Below are positions 23,131-28,540 of a stretch of DNA of 42,746 nucleotides, one piece after another (positions within the stretch are counted from its first letter, which is position 1; each line of letters begins with the position of its first letter). The DNA comes from an uncultured Bacteroidales bacterium (GTDB lineage: Bacteria; Bacteroidota; Bacteroidia; Bacteroidales; UBA932). Below the pieces are notes generated by a model that saw only the letters and a program-made list of their open reading frames with translations, searched no databases and was not told the origin of the DNA. Location of the stretch: NCBI GenBank assembly GCA_900318355.1, contig ONKE01000008.1:1-42746 (forward strand). Reading direction: 5' to 3'. Both the position numbers and the translations under genes were made by a program.

Positions 23131-23188
23131 AGCAGCTTATGCAAAGAGCCTCCCCTGAATTCAGAGGAGGCTCTTTGCGTAAAGAACA
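23131..23188. repeat. Hairpin element, copy B (also a likely bidirectional terminator)
   Basis: A perfect 13-bp stem, GCAAAGAGCCTCC (23141-23153) with GGAGGCTCTTTGC (23166-23178), encloses a further palindrome CTGAATTCAG. Flanks AGCAGCTTAT and GTAAAGA match copy A at 19938. It separates the convergent lipoprotein gene and nuclease sequence. The stem could terminate both, though neither side has a long T-run. Confidence 0.7.
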
Positions 23189-23215: not shown

Positions 23216-24043
23216 CTACCAGGACGATGCTGTGGCTTTTATCAGTTGCGCCTGCGACTCGCCGACTTTGGAAGCCAGGTTGGCGAAGAAGGTCATGCCA
23301 GTCTTCTTTTCGACTTCGGTCACGCTCACGCGGGCGCTCATGTCGAAGGAGTCGGCGCTAAGCTCGCCGTCAAGGTAGGCGAAATGGTCGTAGATGTAGG
23401 CGCAGGAGGTGTACGAACCGTTCTTGAGCCGGAGGAGAGCCTTGTAATAATGCGTCGGGACGGTGATGCGCATACCGGTGTTGCGGTCGGTGGTGGAGCG
23501 GGTGCTTCCCTCGACGATGCAGCCTGTCACTACATAGAGCGTGTCGCAGCCTTTCGCCCAGTAACGGACTTGACTCTCGAGCTGTGCCCAGAGATTGTTG
23601 TTGAAATCGTGGCACTGCGGAGTCATGTTGGTGCTGTAGAAGGTGGAGGCGTTGGCGGCGTAGCTGCTCAGGCGGTCGGCCGAAGGGAGTTGATGGCCCC
23701 TGGCGTAGGATGTGCTGCCGGTGTAGGTCGAGGTGACGTCTGGCTGCTGAGAGGACGGCAGAAGCGGATCGTAGCCCCAGGCGTCGGTCCGGTCGACATT
23801 TGCCTCGAGAATGCTGGCGTAGAGCGGATAGGCTACCCAAAGGGAAACCTTGTTGGAGGCATCCCAGAGGAAAGACCAGTTGCGCACCGTCTTTCCGCCA
23901 AGCTGCAGATCGTTGTGGGTGTAGAACGCCCCGGCATCGCTGCGGGCAGGCATTTCCATCCACCCTGCATAGGTCTGTGAGCTCTCACTCCCGGAACCAC
24001 CTCCGGAGGGGTTGTCCCCTCCGGAGCCGGAACCGGAGCCACT
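23216..24043 (-). pseudogene. DNA/RNA non-specific endonuclease domain cut off by an in-frame TGA
   Basis: This stretch is in the same frame as the upstream giant lipoprotein and follows its TGA (24044-24046) directly: 28 codons of Gly/Ser-rich linker, then 247 more from the first Met at 23959. The enzyme part is of the NUC1 (Serratia nuclease-like) type: YARGHQLPSADR carries the catalytic His (H89 of the Met-started piece; the usual DRGH Asp is Ala), NMTPQ follows, and FNNNLWAQLE supplies the metal-binding Asn (N120), then LYVVTG. On its own it has no signal peptide and no visible ribosome site, so it is best read as the C-terminal domain of the upstream protein, separated by a nonsense change or expressed by read-through. 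Confidence 0.7.
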
Positions 24044-27000
24044 TCACTCGTTGGTCACGGAAACATTTTTAATCTCCCAGGTGCCAGCCTTTTTGGCTGT
24101 AGACACATACTTGAAGGCGAACTGGCACTTCTTTCCTGCAAAACTGCTCAAACTGACCTTTGTATCGACCCAGGTCCAGCTAGTTCCGGTAGGATAGGCT
24201 GACATGGTTGCCTGAGACCAGGTACCATTCTCTTCCCGAACCATCACGGCAATCTCATTCTGCATCGTACCGAAGTACCGACCAGCCTGCTGAAAAGCAA
24301 GGGTCGCTGCATCTTCGTTGGTTAAGTCGATGACCGGAGAAATCAGCCACGATTCAGCAGCATAGTTAGTATTATTGATGTATGCCGTAACTTTTGCGCC
24401 ATAGCTCGAGTTGAATCCCCAAATAGATGTTGCCCCGGACGGGAGGGTAACATTATCGATGGTAAACTCCCCTTGAGTTGTCATTGTGGACTCGAACAGG
24501 GTCGTAGCCGTCGGCACGTCGCCCTCTGAAGTAATGGTGATATCATCCATTCCCCAAAGCGTTATTTGATGATCGGAATTATGTTTACTCGGAAAACCAA
24601 TAGCATCAAAAACAGCATTTGCATTCAGCTTGACAGTTGCCTGCGGATAGAAGACAAACTCATTGGATCCCTGCTTGAAAGTCAGATTGGCCTTGGAAGC
24701 GTTTACGGCGCTCTCCGTCGTCAAACCGGTGACCTTGATACGCATGCCGACATAGGCGTCGAAGTTGGCGTTGAGCTGGGCGAGGGTAACCTCGTGCAGA
24801 GGAATGGCGGTCGTGGTCGTAACGGTTGCCTGGGAGACATCGATGTCGGTGACTTCGAGAAGGCCGTTGTAGATCTTGCCCTTGCCGGAAACGGCGCCGT
24901 TGATCACCTGGCCGGCCACGAGGCCGTGGTTGTTCTTATAGATGGTGATACCTTCGGTACCATCTTCAATATAAGCGTAGCGGGTATCGGACGCAGGGGC
25001 GTAGGTGACGACCCAGTCCTTGACAGTACCGGAGAAGGCGACATCGTTAGTGGCTTCACCAATCGTGGTCTTAACGGCGGCAAGGGTGAGGGTGGGTGTC
25101 TGAGGATCGGGATCCGTGGGGGTAGTGCCTTCCTTGACCGTCACCGTGAAGGAAGCGGTCGCAGGCTTGTAGGTGTCGTTGCCTTCAAAGGTCAGCGTAA
25201 AGACAGCCGTACCGGCCTCCTTGGCCACGATGATTCTTTCGCCGGTCTGGGCGACCGTGACGTCCGCGACGTCCGTTTTGTCGGAAACCGGGTTCAGGCC
25301 GGAAACTGCCGAACGCGCTGCAGACGGTCCTACCCAGGGAGTCGGGAGATTTATCGTCTCACCGACCGTCATTTCGAAGGAAGCGGGGTCGTAGGAAAGC
25401 GACACTTCGGTGCGGTTGTCGGTCTGCTCCTTGACCGTCACGAAATCCTGGCCATAGACGCTGAACTGATAGGTCGTGCCGGAAGAAGTGGTATAGATGG
25501 CCGGGAAACCAATCACATCCACGGTAGCTCCGGCGGCGATTTCCAGCGTCGTGGCGACATTGAGACGGCCCGAGATCTGGCGCTGTCCCTGCTCGATGGT
25601 AAAGTTGCCCTTCTTGTTGGTCAGGGCGACGGCTTCCGGGATGGTGGCGTCGACAATCTTGACATACATGCTCTCGTAGGCAAGATAGTCGTCCAGGATC
25701 TGAGCCACGGTCGCCTCGGTGGGAACGGGGGCCGAGTCCGCATCGGTGATGACGACGTCATCGCCGAAGGTGACGGACTTGATCTCGCGGAGGCCGCTGT
25801 AAATGTCCGTCGTACCTGAAATCGTACCGCTGATGACCTTGCCGGCGGTCAGCTGGGCGGAATTGCCGTACATCAGGATAGCGCCCGTCTCATCCTCCAG
25901 ATAGACGTTACCGCCATTGACATAGGTCACGACAATATCCTTGACCGTAACGGTGAACGTTTCACCGGCTTCGGCGCACCACGCCTTGAGGTCGGCGACG
26001 GTCGAATAGGTGATTTCCGCAGACATGACCTTGACGGGAACCACGATTGAAGCGGGCTTGTAGGTGTTGTCGCCAGCATAGGTGATGGTGATTTTGCCGT
26101 TGCCGGGAGCAATACCCTTGATGGCGCTCGGATCTTCGGTGTAGCTGAAATATTCTTCGCCTTCGACGGAGACGGAGAGCTTTTCGCCATCCAGCTCATC
26201 GGAAACATCCTTGCCGTCAGTTGTCGTTACCGAGAGGGCGAATCCTTCAACAGTTTCGCCGACCTTGACTACGACTTCTGCAGGGGTGGCGGTGAAGGTA
26301 ATGGCAATACGCTCGTCGACAGGGCCGACCTCGCCGGCCTTGCGGTAGAGGGCGATGGCTTTCTGTCTGCTGTAGGAAGATGACTTGTAATAGCGGAAAC
26401 GCTTCTGGTCGGAGGCCGAATTGAAGCGCAGATAGGCCCCGCCGCTGACGATGTCGGCATTTCCATCCGCTGTGATGCTGATGGAATTGGCAATCGCCGT
26501 CTCGCCCTCCACAAGGCCGTTGGCATCGGACGTCTGACCGATATACTTGCCGGAAGCACTCTGGATGGTCCAACCGTCCGTAACTTCCGCCAGCGAGAAG
26601 GAGAACGCATCCACCGTCCCGGAAGAAAGGATGCCGTCGTCAGTAATGGTAACTTCCTTGTAGTCATTGCTGGCATCCAAAGTCTCAAGGCTTCCGTCCA
26701 TCGCAAGACTACCGTCTTCGTAGACAATCAGATACTGACCGGCAAGGAGCTCGTCGTCACTGTCGACCTTGACATAATATACGCTGCCAGACGGCTGGGG
26801 ATTGTCTTCCTCCTTGCCAAGCTGGGTGAAGACAAATTCCTGGGCCTCGGTATCGGCGGCGGTGAAGGTCACCTTGCCGGTGCGGGACTCCTTGGAAGTG
26901 TTTTCCTGGATGGTGATCCTGAAGATGTGCTCGGCCATGGCCTTGGTCTGGACGGCGGTGGCCCAGTCTACGTCGACCGCGGCGGTCACATCGACGTTGG

Positions 27001-28540
27001 AGGAAATGACATAATCGATCTCCTGCGCTTCTGCGCTGTATTCGGCATCGGGCTCGGAAAGGACGATGGCGTTGTCCTGAAGCTGGCTGACGGTGATTTC
27101 GTAGGCCTTGCCGTTGGGATCGGTGAAGGTTACGACAGCGTTGCGGGACTCGTGGGAGTCGTTGGCTTTGACGATGACGGTGTTGACAGCCTCATCGCTT
27201 ACGGAGATCCAGTCTACACCTTCCGGGATGGAGATGGTGTAGGTCACGCCCGCCTTGAGCTGGACGGCGATGGTGCCGCCGGTGGCGTCGACGTCGTAGG
27301 TGGTCTGGTAGGAACCGTCGGGCTGGATCTTGATGGTCTTGACGAAGGTGGAGTAGTCGGAACCTTCGAGGATGAAGAGGATCTTGGCGACCTTCTCGAT
27401 CACTGCCGGGGCGGTGATGGTCACGACCTGCGCCTTTTCGTCGATGACGACATCCCAGCCGTCGGGCTCGTAGGTGTTGAACACTACGTCGACGCCTTCG
27501 GGAGCTACGATCGTGTAGGGAACTTCGATGGTGGCACCGGCCTTGAGGGTTGCGAAGACAGTCTCGTCAAACTCGAGATGGAGCTTTACGGGCTCTGCAG
27601 GCTCGGTCCAGTAGGGGCAGTTGATTACGGTGCCGTTGTTGAGCACGAATTCAACGTAGTCGTCTTTCGGGGTGCAGGTGGAGATGACGGAGGTCACGGT
27701 CACATTGGCCTGGGAAACGCCGAGTGCGATCCACTCCACGTCGCCGTTGTAGCGGTAGTACCACCAGTCGTTGTTGTTGTCGTCGGGGTTGGGAGCGATC
27801 TTGAACTCGGGAGTGCGGCCGTCGGCGCCGTCTTTGCCGTCTTTGCCGTCTTTGCCGGCAGGACCCTGCTCACCCTGAGGACCCTGGACACCCTGCTCGC
27901 CTTGAGGGCCCTGAGGACCCGTCTCGCCCTGGGGCCCCGTGGCGCCGGGTTCACCCTGCTCACCCTGAGGACCCTGGACGCCCTGCTCGCCTTGAGGGCC
28001 CTGAGGGCCCTGGGGACCCGTGGCGCCGGGTTCACCCTGCTCACCCTGAGGACCTTGAGGACCCTGAGGACCAGTGGCGCGGACAGGATTGCCGGAGGCA
28101 TCCTTCATGGGCTCGCCGTTAAGATACCAGTAATAGAGGCCGTCTGCCTCCTGAACGAGGGTCACGACAGGGGTTACGCCGTCGTCGCCCTTGGCGCCAG
28201 TTGCGCCGGTCTCGCCCTTCTCACCACGCTCACCTTTGGCGCCGTCCTGGCCGTTGATACCCGGCACGCCGTTATGGATTTCAATGGGATCACCGCTGTT
28301 GAAAGTAATCCTGTAACCATTGTTGATCGGTTCTACGCCGGTCACAAATACCTTTCCTTCAACCATTCCACGGACTGTGGTCAGCTCCGTGTTAAGTTGC
28401 TTGTACTGGCTCTCCAGGGATGAGATACGGGTCTCGTGGTCGTCGAGACGCTTCTCAATCGGAGACAAATCGGTCGTCGAGCAGCCGAATGCCAACACGG
28501 CAGCGACTGCAACAGAGAAGAACGAGTTGAACTTTTTCAT
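24044..28540 (-). CDS. Giant lipoprotein with collagen-like stalk (BACON, Ig-like, DUF5689-like, choice-of-anchor J domains)
   Basis: 1498 aa. Signal peptide with lipobox AFGC (Cys20); probable coiled coil at 25-60; collagen-like Gly-X-Y runs at 91-121 and 157-241; two BACON-like domains at about 415-487 and 493-576; an unassigned beta domain at 585-736; Ig-like domains at about 745-838 and 1045-1136; two DUF5689-like (OB-fold) domains at about 846-1036 and 1150-1336; and a choice-of-anchor J/jelly-roll domain at 1345-1497. It ends at TGA in front of an in-frame Gly-Ser linker and nuclease domain. BACON and DUF5689 are common in surface proteins of gut Bacteroidales. Inference: originally one protein of about 1774 residues holding a nuclease away from the cell on a stalk. 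Confidence 0.8.
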   Translation of the reverse strand: MKKFNSFFSVAVAAVLAFGCSTTDLSPIEKRLDDHETRISSLESQYKQLNTELTTVRGMVEGKVFVTGVEPINNGYRITFNSGDPIEIHNGVPGINGQDGAKGERGEKGETGATGAKGDDGVTPVVTLVQEADGLYYWYLNGEPMKDASGNPVRATGPQGPQGPQGEQGEPGATGPQGPQGPQGEQGVQGPQGEQGEPGATGPQGETGPQGPQGEQGVQGPQGEQGPAGKDGKDGKDGADGRTPEFKIAPNPDDNNNDWWYYRYNGDVEWIALGVSQANVTVTSVISTCTPKDDYVEFVLNNGTVINCPYWTEPAEPVKLHLEFDETVFATLKAGATIEVPYTIVAPEGVDVVFNTYEPDGWDVVIDEKAQVVTITAPAVIEKVAKILFILEGSDYSTFVKTIKIQPDGSYQTTYDVDATGGTIAVQLKAGVTYTISIPEGVDWISVSDEAVNTVIVKANDSHESRNAVVTFTDPNGKAYEITVSQLQDNAIVLSEPDAEYSAEAQEIDYVISSNVDVTAAVDVDWATAVQTKAMAEHIFRITIQENTSKESRTGKVTFTAADTEAQEFVFTQLGKEEDNPQPSGSVYYVKVDSDDELLAGQYLIVYEDGSLAMDGSLETLDASNDYKEVTITDDGILSSGTVDAFSFSLAEVTDGWTIQSASGKYIGQTSDANGLVEGETAIANSISITADGNADIVSGGAYLRFNSASDQKRFRYYKSSSYSRQKAIALYRKAGEVGPVDERIAITFTATPAEVVVKVGETVEGFALSVTTTDGKDVSDELDGEKLSVSVEGEEYFSYTEDPSAIKGIAPGNGKITITYAGDNTYKPASIVVPVKVMSAEITYSTVADLKAWCAEAGETFTVTVKDIVVTYVNGGNVYLEDETGAILMYGNSAQLTAGKVISGTISGTTDIYSGLREIKSVTFGDDVVITDADSAPVPTEATVAQILDDYLAYESMYVKIVDATIPEAVALTNKKGNFTIEQGQRQISGRLNVATTLEIAAGATVDVIGFPAIYTTSSGTTYQFSVYGQDFVTVKEQTDNRTEVSLSYDPASFEMTVGETINLPTPWVGPSAARSAVSGLNPVSDKTDVADVTVAQTGERIIVAKEAGTAVFTLTFEGNDTYKPATASFTVTVKEGTTPTDPDPQTPTLTLAAVKTTIGEATNDVAFSGTVKDWVVTYAPASDTRYAYIEDGTEGITIYKNNHGLVAGQVINGAVSGKGKIYNGLLEVTDIDVSQATVTTTTAIPLHEVTLAQLNANFDAYVGMRIKVTGLTTESAVNASKANLTFKQGSNEFVFYPQATVKLNANAVFDAIGFPSKHNSDHQITLWGMDDITITSEGDVPTATTLFESTMTTQGEFTIDNVTLPSGATSIWGFNSSYGAKVTAYINNTNYAAESWLISPVIDLTNEDAATLAFQQAGRYFGTMQNEIAVMVREENGTWSQATMSAYPTGTSWTWVDTKVSLSSFAGKKCQFAFKYVSTAKKAGTWEIKNVSVTNE
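27830..28080. repeat. GC-rich tandem DNA repeats encoding the collagen-like stalk
   Basis: Nine-base Gly-X-Y units (GGTCCTCAG, GGTGAGCAG types on the coding strand) are arranged in larger near-copies: the segments reading GEQGEPGATGPQG and [13 protein letters not shown] each recur. Because every unit is a multiple of 9 bp, gain or loss of units changes stalk length without shifting the frame. Confidence 0.75.

What the first reader, a model, noticed from the sequence alone, without database searches (positions are those of the whole stretch)
23216..28540. A single in-frame TGA at the start of a Gly-Ser linker cuts a secreted nuclease off a giant lipoprotein
The 1498-residue lipoprotein ends at TGA (24044-24046). 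The next 28 codons, in the same frame, encode a linker of alternating Ser and Gly, then a NUC1-type nuclease with its catalytic His and metal-binding Asn. If the TGA were GGA, one base different, the linker would be an unbroken Gly-Ser run. TGA is an ordinary stop in this genome (rsmH, murC and ftsA end in it with ATGA overlaps), so global recoding is unlikely. The nuclease piece alone has no signal peptide or ribosome site. Either this is a very recent nonsense mutation, with the rest of the frame still intact, or read-through makes a small fraction of nuclease-bearing protein.
Basis: partly seen in the sequence, partly recalled or inferred. Interest (0 to 1): 0.75.

Follow-up and report, generated by a model that had tools for sequence, protein, structure and literature searches.

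The report
Leaky stop codon feeding surface nuclease
[quoted passage not shown] this has not been shown by experiment.

Summary
The window's lipoprotein (1498 aa) ends at TGA 24046-24044, followed in frame by a Gly-Ser linker and a complete Endonuclease_NS nuclease without a signal peptide. The same layout occurs, unbroken, at 75 further places; with the window that makes 68 of 400 genus genomes, including a second locus in the window's genome. The upstream lipoproteins differ, most of all at their ends. The stop is always TGA. A stem-loop starts 6-7 nt after it, with compensatory changes (one pair occurs as CG, AU, GC and UA); a shorter helix follows. The downstream frame is under purifying selection (dN/dS 0.07-0.27 in 19 measurable pairs). 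No tRNA-Sec reached the cut-off in 18 genomes and no UCA-anticodon tRNA was seen among those typed in two; TGA is an ordinary stop here. Best explanation: programmed UGA readthrough stimulated by 3' RNA structure, giving mostly plain lipoprotein and some nuclease-bearing lipoprotein. Nuclease cassettes are exchanged between lipoproteins at the TGA/hairpin. Four loci have another RNA class. The window's own hairpin is a displaced, weakly scoring version. All evidence is from sequence; there is none from protein. I found no description in the searches made.

The parts
24044..28540 (-). Lipoprotein ORF, 1498 aa, signal peptide with lipobox (...AVLAFGCS, by eye), DUF4988, collagen-like repeats, BACON, choice-of-anchor J; stop TGA included
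24044..24046 (-). In-frame TGA, proposed leaky stop; preceding codon GAG
   Evidence: TGA in all 73 compiled junctions
24001..24026 (-). Stem-loop CTCCGGAGGGG-ACAA-CCCCTCCGGAG, 11 bp, 17 nt after the TGA (in the relatives 6-7 nt); proposed readthrough stimulator
   Evidence: folds; 0 of 1000 synonymous recodings as stable; first of 26 R2 model hits in the window, 13.2 bits, E 0.029, matching model positions 10-44, i.e. without the TGA part; window not in the model
23960..24043 (-). 28-codon Gly/Ser linker in frame with the lipoprotein
23219..23959 (-). Nuclease (Endonuclease_NS / NUC1 type); His of RGH at 23695-23693, Asn of TNMTPQ at 23629-23627 (catalytic roles recalled); stop TAG 23218-23216
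   Evidence: nearest solved relatives 2o3b, 1zm8, 1ql0
23141..23178 (.). Inverted repeat after the nuclease stop, between two converging genes, probably a two-way terminator, so the nuclease would be the 3' end of the lipoprotein transcript
   Evidence: read by eye from the sequence; terminator role inferred, no terminator scan run

Best explanation
The UGA between the lipoprotein and the nuclease is a programmed leaky stop. Most ribosomes terminate there and give a plain surface lipoprotein. A minority, helped by the RNA stem-loop just downstream that presumably slows RF2 action or stalls the ribosome, let a near-cognate tRNA (probably tRNA-Trp) read the UGA and continue through the linker into the nuclease. 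This yields a small amount of outer-membrane-anchored lipoprotein with a nuclease tip. Shown from sequence: same-frame layout, invariant TGA, RNA structure with compensatory changes, purifying selection on the downstream frame, absence of a signal peptide on the nuclease, exchange of cassettes between different lipoproteins at this point. Inferred: that readthrough occurs, its level, the tRNA used, surface display, and the role (degrading foreign or extracellular DNA/RNA for competition, feeding or defence).
For: (1) Recurrence: before any RNA model was used, protein searches gave 18 unbroken junctions, all TGA, and a nineteenth, L177, with a broken frame. Of 30 protein-selected loci the start of the nuclease frame is visible in 17, all TGA (two of them were among the 18). 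In 314 held loci, among frames that a nuclease HMM confirms, those without a signal-peptide-like stretch that directly follow an in-frame ORF of at least 100 aa come after TGA in 65 cases and after TAA or TAG in 0; nuclease frames with a signal-peptide-like stretch follow TGA 18, TAA 33, TAG 15. Many of these loci were fetched because of the RNA model, which includes the TGA. Ordinary ORFs end in TGA in 22 of 71. (2) An RNA model scan of 400 genus genomes listed 91 places at E<=0.02. All 91 were examined: 75 unbroken lipoprotein-TGA-element junctions, 5 with a broken frame (L177, L215, L218, L251, L313), 11 chance. The model looks only at TGA plus hairpins, yet the unbroken ones lead into a nuclease frame wherever the locus reaches far enough (two reach a contig end after 46 codons, one runs off its locus after 510). 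(3) Structure: helix I 98.9% paired, helix II 74.6%; 88 cells changed on both sides against 32.5 in shuffles, 0/500 as high; pair 15-25 seen as CG/AU/GC/UA. RNAalifold predicts helix I unprompted. Against synonymous recodings of the linker 72 of 73 junctions are more stable than average (median z -1.42); control medians: upstream +0.65, further downstream -0.17. (4) dN/dS 0.07-0.27 in 19 of 22 pairs (dS not computable in 3). (5) In 21 of 22 pairs with matching cassettes the last 150 aa before the TGA are only 0.15-0.30 identical. In genome G391 two lipoproteins with different ends share a cassette 100% identical from the T of TGA to the contig end, 141 nt. (6) tRNA-Sec over cut-off in 0 of 18 genomes; no TCA anticodon among the tRNAs typed in G000 and G251.
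Against: No proteomic, ribosome-profiling or reporter evidence. The window's own hairpin starts 17 nt after the TGA instead of 6-7 and scores weakly with the model (E 0.029). Helix II fails at two of its four pairs in about half the sequences, and RNAalifold does not return it. The excess stability over synonymous recodings is large in only part of the set (24 of 73 with z<-2; 6 of 73 beaten by none of 200), and in the first five tested it was clear in two. The base after TGA is A 40, C 21, G 10, T 2 of 73, so the leaky UGA-C context recalled from other systems is not the rule. The loci are related to one another, and half of the pairs of upstream proteins are too, so shuffle counts are not probabilities. 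L133 has the TGA split with no clear hairpin. The tRNA surveys are incomplete: three weak hits of G000 gave no ARAGORN call, and 9 of 39 hits of G251 were not typed.
Confidence: 0.8

Rival explanations
1. The TGA is a true terminator and the downstream nuclease is a silent reserve cassette, as in polymorphic toxin systems; DNA recombination at the palindromic element sometimes joins it to an open frame.
For: Cassettes are exchanged between lipoproteins with the breakpoint at the TGA/hairpin; direct fusions without the stop exist in the genus; one locus (L303) carries a second, truncated cassette piece downstream.
Against: In G391 the shared cassette includes the TGA, so recombination at this point would not remove the stop. 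Strict frame and purifying selection in different species need frequent translation. The structure is kept by compensatory changes, and two different structures serve the same place.
Confidence: 0.1
2. UGA is decoded by a dedicated tRNA: selenocysteine with a SECIS-like hairpin, a UCA suppressor tRNA, or general reassignment of UGA.
For: UGA followed by a hairpin resembles a bacterial SECIS in outline (recalled).
Against: tRNA-Sec over cut-off in 0 of 18 positive genomes; the two best sub-cut-off hits are tRNA-Leu(taa) and tRNA-Ser(tga). No TCA anticodon among the tRNAs typed in G000 and G251; G251 has a tRNA-Trp(cca) with a 5-pair anticodon stem, the top pair G-U. TGA ends 22 of 71 ordinary ORFs. 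SelA/SelB genes were not searched for.
Confidence: 0.04
3. Ribosomes reinitiate after the TGA and make the nuclease as a separate protein.
For: Some nuclease frames hold an ATG or GTG near the domain start (window 23959, L035 7989).
Against: The product would lack export signals and be a free cytoplasmic nuclease. The linker between the TGA and the domain stays open in frame in the 73 compiled junctions, which reinitiation would not require.
Confidence: 0.04
4. A recent nonsense mutation or an assembly error in a formerly fused gene.
For: Direct lipoprotein-linker-nuclease fusions without a stop exist in the genus (L123, L124).
Against: 75 other unbroken junctions share TGA at the same boundary; downstream dN/dS well below 1. 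True decay looks different: extra stops or frame breaks in L177, L215, L218, L251 and L313.
Confidence: 0.02

Closest known systems
RNA phage Q-beta coat/A1 readthrough
   Same: A UGA at the end of an abundant protein, in-frame extension giving a minor longer protein in bacteria (passage and reference entry of PMC8310308 seen; the A1 details recalled).
   Different: Phage RNA, not chromosomal genes; here a conserved 3' stem-loop and exchangeable enzyme cassettes.
Alphavirus and murine leukaemia virus readthrough with a 3' RNA stimulator
   Same: Stop codon followed by a structure that raises readthrough: a conserved stem loop 3' of the alphavirus UGA, and a pseudoknot 8 nt after the MuLV UAG (passages of PMC8310308).
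   Different: Eukaryotic ribosomes and release factors; here bacterial, with a short hairpin 6-7 nt after UGA.
Bacterial selenocysteine insertion (UGA plus SECIS)
   Same: UGA followed by an RNA hairpin.
   Different: No tRNA-Sec over cut-off in 18 genomes; the UGA lies at a domain/linker boundary, not at a redox site.
Endonuclease_NS / NUC1 nucleases (Anabaena NucA, Serratia nuclease, EndoG, EXOG; organism names partly recalled)
   Same: Full domain; (R/K)GH or similar xGH after residue 100 in 70 of 73 downstream frames; PDB relatives 2o3b, 1zm8, 1ql0 at 4.5e-21 or better.
   Different: No export signal of its own; attached to a lipoprotein through a stop codon.
Polymorphic toxin systems with exchangeable C-terminal cassettes (recalled)
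   Same: C-terminal nuclease modules exchanged between carriers.
   Different: Stop codon at the boundary; no neighbour gene common to the 22 loci examined.

Membership tests
Programmed stop-codon readthrough with 3' RNA stimulator | Single stop between two coding regions in one frame | tested here: met
   Window and 75 other unbroken junctions
Programmed stop-codon readthrough with 3' RNA stimulator | Stop codon conserved in kind | tested here: met
   TGA in 18 of 18 protein-selected unbroken junctions and 65 to 0 against TAA/TAG in a scan of held loci with HMM-confirmed nucleases
Programmed stop-codon readthrough with 3' RNA stimulator | Protein-coding selection after the stop | tested here: met
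   dN/dS 0.07-0.27 in 19 of 22 pairs; dS not computable in 3
Programmed stop-codon readthrough with 3' RNA stimulator | Conserved RNA structure close after the stop | tested here: met
   Helix I 98.9% paired with compensatory changes over 72 sequences; RNAalifold agrees. For the window itself the hairpin is displaced and scores weakly
Programmed stop-codon readthrough with 3' RNA stimulator | Extended product made in cells | not testable with these tools
   Needs reporter or proteome
Bacterial selenoprotein (UGA + SECIS) | tRNA-Sec in the genome | tested here: not met
   0 of 18 genomes over the gathering score; drafts 57-98% complete
Genomes with UGA reassigned | UGA not used as an ordinary stop; UCA-anticodon tRNA | tested here: not met
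   22 of 71 ordinary ORFs end in TGA; no TCA anticodon among typed tRNAs of two genomes
Endonuclease_NS (PF01223) | Full domain with catalytic His | tested here: met
   Window 1.3e-40; 10 of 10 other downstream frames scanned; xGH motif in 70 of 73
Polymorphic toxin system | Exchangeable C-terminal toxin module | tested here: met
   Cassettes shared by carriers with different ends
Polymorphic toxin system | Adjacent immunity gene | tested here: inconclusive
   No neighbour family common to 22 loci, but three loci (L295, L297, L298) share a converging 776-855 aa neighbour and three other pairs matched; many loci end within about 1 kb

The most novel reading that the evidence does not exclude
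A large genus of gut Bacteroidales has a dedicated cis-acting RNA readthrough signal (UGA, 6-7 nt, tandem hairpins; plus a second, structurally different class) that travels as the 5' end of nuclease cassettes. By landing at the 3' end of different lipoprotein genes, it turns each into a two-form product: mostly plain, with a set minority carrying a surface nuclease. It would be a chromosomal, modular, programmed UGA readthrough system in bacteria that does not use selenocysteine.
Probability: 0.72. Interest if true: 0.93.

Novelty: new variant of a known kind. Interest (0 to 1): 0.9.

Why it matters
Programmed readthrough of a stop codon into a long functional domain is well known in viruses and some eukaryotes. 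In bacteria I know only phage Q-beta and selenocysteine/pyrrolysine insertion (recalled; the review passages seen name no chromosomal non-Sec bacterial example, which is not proof of absence). If true, gene finders would cut these proteins in two and report the nuclease as an orphan fragment. It would also offer a short, portable RNA element that sets readthrough on a bacterial ribosome, with many natural variants and compensatory pairs to test, and would show how a surface nuclease can be dosed by translation.

Tried and rejected
Selenocysteine was tested by tRNA-Sec search and rejected; SelA/SelB were not searched. A suppressor tRNA was looked for by typing tRNA genes of two genomes and not found; both surveys are incomplete. 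The element outside the genus: a scan of 334 genomes drawn over the order gave 3 genomes at E<=0.001, the window's own and G465 and G409; the surroundings of those two have no such frames, so I treat them as chance; the scan used strict filters. Rfam: in 7 loci one weak sub-threshold match, away from the element. Immunity gene: none common to 22 loci. I first wrote that the upstream lipoproteins are mostly unrelated; a check showed otherwise and I changed it: of 946 pairs of 44 complete upstream frames, 477 have a BLAST hit at 1e-5 and 160 a hit over half of one of them, while only 31 hits reach the last 50 residues of both. Literature: seven searches on readthrough (one search returned none), one on 3' stem-loop readthrough and one on the genus name I guessed showed no report of this; only listings with the starts of abstracts, and passages of five papers, were seen. 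PMC9308784 uses the word for transcription only. PMC13092985 (passages) reports that a tRNA-Trp(cca) with a 4-pair anticodon stem raises UGA readthrough in E. coli; G251's tRNA-Trp has five pairs. My first translation of loci ignored strand for minus-strand matches and was redone. One search was a useless alignment (wrong reference). One search counted some elements as ordinary ORFs and was replaced. One search used a motif to recognise nucleases and listed artefacts; redid the count with an HMM.
Full report
The observation. On the minus strand of the window a lipoprotein ORF runs from ATG 28540 to TGA 24046-24044 (1498 aa). The frame continues for 275 codons to a TAG at 23218-23216: 28 linker residues rich in Gly and Ser, then a complete Endonuclease_NS domain (1.3e-40, profile 20-221 of 223). 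After the TGA lies a stem-loop of 11 GC-rich pairs (24026-24001). The first 45, 60 and 75 nt after the TGA each fold more stably than all of 1000 recodings that keep the amino acids. Of the other four junctions in that test, L111 was equally clear at 45 nt (0 of 1000), while L110, L130 and L131 were matched by 29, 129 and 99 of 1000 at 45 nt.

The same arrangement elsewhere. A protein search for the nuclease in the genus and in named genomes gave, at first, two more cases: L035 (= L110, a roe deer rumen MAG, RGIG4901) and L010 (= L111). In both a different lipoprotein ends ...Glu-TGA-Ser and an in-frame Gly/Ser linker leads into the nuclease. Reading 20 loci gave two further ones, L114 and L118. 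A search with the nuclease of L130 (a longer stretch of the L114 place) and 20 more loci gave 13 more. These 18 were chosen by protein alone, and all 18 stops are TGA. In one search, seven of the 20 loci were not unbroken junctions: L171, L175 and L180 have their own N-terminal hydrophobic segment; L178 is a long frame with no stop at the junction; L179 and L181 run to a contig edge; L177 has the element but its frame is broken.

The element. Aligned from the TGA, 16 junctions show a hairpin whose first paired base is the 7th nucleotide after TGA. It pairs in 98.3% of cells against 90.9% in shuffles (0 of 500), and one pair occurs as CG, AU, GC and UA. A covariance model (R1) was scanned over 400 genomes of the genus: 79 genomes had a match at E<=0.02, with 91 places listed. 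I read all 91. Seventy-five are unbroken lipoprotein-TGA-element junctions. Five have a broken frame: L177 (frame break at the element), L215 and L313 (a second stop just after the TGA), L218 (downstream frame closes after 73 codons) and L251 (upstream frame only 85 codons). Eleven are chance matches with no such frames. With the window this makes 76 unbroken junctions in 68 genomes (69 counted, less the one whose only case is L251). Of the 73 junctions compiled (window, L218 and L251 included), the downstream frame is closed and at least 200 aa in 69; two reach a contig end after 46 codons (G391a, G391b), one runs off its locus after 510 (G092), and L218 closes after 73. The five further ones have 387-521 codons. 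Upstream, 45 of the 73 frames are complete in their locus: 38 match a lipobox pattern, six more show a lipobox by eye, and the last is L251; the other 28 run off the fetched stretch. The window's own genome has a second junction, L247 (G000:C1), with a 1110-codon upstream frame and a 518-codon downstream frame.

On the 72-sequence alignment (window left out because its hairpin is displaced), helix I is 98.9% paired and a second helix is 74.6% paired; by eye it is often closed by a GNRA-like loop. In about half the sequences two pairs of the second helix fail. Over both helices 88 cells have changes on both sides, against 32.5 in shuffles (0 of 500), and slid structures fall to 34-58% paired. 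RNAalifold, not told the structure, returns helix I only. Against synonymous recodings 72 of 73 junctions lie below the mean (median z -1.42; 24 of 73 below -2), while upstream and further-downstream controls have medians +0.65 and -0.17. Scanned over the whole window without having been trained on it, model R2 ranks the window's own junction hairpin first of 26 hits, though only at 13.2 bits, E 0.029, and without its TGA part. So the window is a divergent member: same stop, linker type and nuclease subfamily as L110 and L111, with the stem moved.

Stop and context. In 314 held loci, nuclease frames confirmed by an HMM, with no signal-peptide-like stretch in their first 100 residues and directly following an in-frame ORF of at least 100 aa, come after TGA in 65 cases and after TAA or TAG in none. 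Nuclease frames with a signal-peptide-like stretch follow TGA 18, TAA 33 and TAG 15 times. Many of the loci were fetched through the RNA model, which includes the TGA; the 18 of 18 above and 17 of 17 protein-selected loci with a visible frame start were not. Ordinary ORFs in the loci end in TGA in 22 of 71. The codon before TGA has A in second place in 72 of 73 junctions, against 31 of 71 ordinary ORFs; this may be part of the signal or a preference of these protein ends.

Coding after the stop. In 22 disjoint pairs with protein identity of at least 0.62, dN/dS of the downstream frame is 0.07-0.27 in the 19 where dS could be computed. All ten other downstream frames given to Pfam are Endonuclease_NS; an xGH motif is present in 70 of 73. 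Ten upstream frames given to Pfam show varied adhesin-like or Ig-like domains (Big_2, BACON, fn3, Mfa2, DUF6359, chitobiase C-terminal; some below the curated cut-off) or nothing.

Exchange of cassettes. The upstream proteins are a diverse but partly related set: of 946 pairs of 44 complete frames, 477 have a BLAST hit at 1e-5 and 160 a hit covering half of one of them, but only 31 hits reach the last 50 residues of both. In 21 of the 22 pairs above, the last 150 residues before the TGA are only 0.15-0.30 identical; only G069/G335a share the whole gene. In G011 and G064 the DNA is 97% identical from 7 nt after the TGA to the end of the G011 contig; the roughly 460 nt before the TGA differ, and further upstream the genes are again 92.5% identical, so the lipoprotein's own C-terminal part has also been exchanged there. 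In G391 two lipoproteins with different ends in one genome share a cassette that is 100% identical from the T of the TGA to the contig end, 141 nt. In that case the shared cassette includes the TGA and the hairpin.

A second class. Four loci found by protein (L135, L147, L153, L159) have TGA, a short linker (S-x-TPQAT type), a repeat and the nuclease, but a different hairpin with an internal loop; in L135 its outer stem is changed on both sides, by eye. L133 has TGA and a short linker without a clear hairpin. Two unlike structures at the same place argue that what is selected is a structure after UGA, not a particular DNA site.

Decoding. No tRNA-Sec reached the cut-off in 18 genomes with the junction. 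tRNA genes typed in G000 (42 hits, three without an ARAGORN call) and G251 (30 of 39 hits) include no UCA anticodon. G251 has a tRNA-Trp(cca) with a five-pair anticodon stem; none was seen in the draft G000. Readthrough by an ordinary near-cognate tRNA is the simplest reading. In-frame hopping over the stop, raised as a possibility in PMC5009743 (passages), would give nearly the same product and is not excluded.

Spread. Within the order, a strict-filter scan of 334 genomes found only the window's own element plus two weak hits without such frames. The genus is not named by the tools; the size of the group and the named relatives (several from ruminant guts) suggest Cryptobacteroides, which is a guess from memory.

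Judgement. The comparative evidence for programmed readthrough is of the kind used for viral and animal readthrough genes (conserved stop, coding conservation beyond it, conserved 3' structure), and several alternatives were tested and failed. The level, the inserted residue and the biological role are not known. I give 0.8 to programmed readthrough as the explanation of the set, slightly less for the window's own displaced hairpin. I found no report of it in nine literature searches, nor in Rfam for seven loci.

Noticed in passing
L186 (G391:C97) and L214 (G391:C164): Two lipoproteins with different ends in one genome carry an identical cassette from the first base of the TGA; both contigs end inside it, as repeats do in short-read assemblies.
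   Followed up: partly
L135, L147, L153, L159: A second class of TGA junction with another hairpin (outer 5-6 bp stem, internal loop, 6-7 bp inner stem), followed further on by a GCAA-capped hairpin.
   Followed up: partly
L202 (G011:C95) and L212 (G064:C7), about 460 nt before the TGA: The two lipoprotein genes are 92.5% identical up to this point and then differ up to the cassette: the protein's C-terminal part was exchanged as well.
   Followed up: no
L303 (G102:C120), about 0.2 to 1.3 kb after the nuclease: A second, truncated copy of the cassette's repeat region downstream of a complete cassette.
   Followed up: no
L177 (G232:C9), L215 (G032:C12), L218 (G294:C46), L251 (G189:C13), L313 (G365:C18): Junctions with a broken frame: a frame break, extra in-frame stops near the hairpin, a truncated nuclease, an interrupted upstream frame.
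   Followed up: partly
73 junctions, codon before the TGA: The last sense codon has A in second position in 72 of 73 cases; it may belong to the signal.
   Followed up: partly
L123, L124 (G016, G060): Long lipoproteins directly fused to a related nuclease through a Gly-rich linker with no stop; other open frames of 736-1129 codons appear.
   Followed up: partly
window 23141-23178: Inverted repeat between two converging genes, probably a two-way terminator.
   Followed up: no
L002 (G000:C48), L003 (G000:C31), L004 (G000:C30): Three further nuclease homologues in the window's genome with other gene layouts.
   Followed up: no
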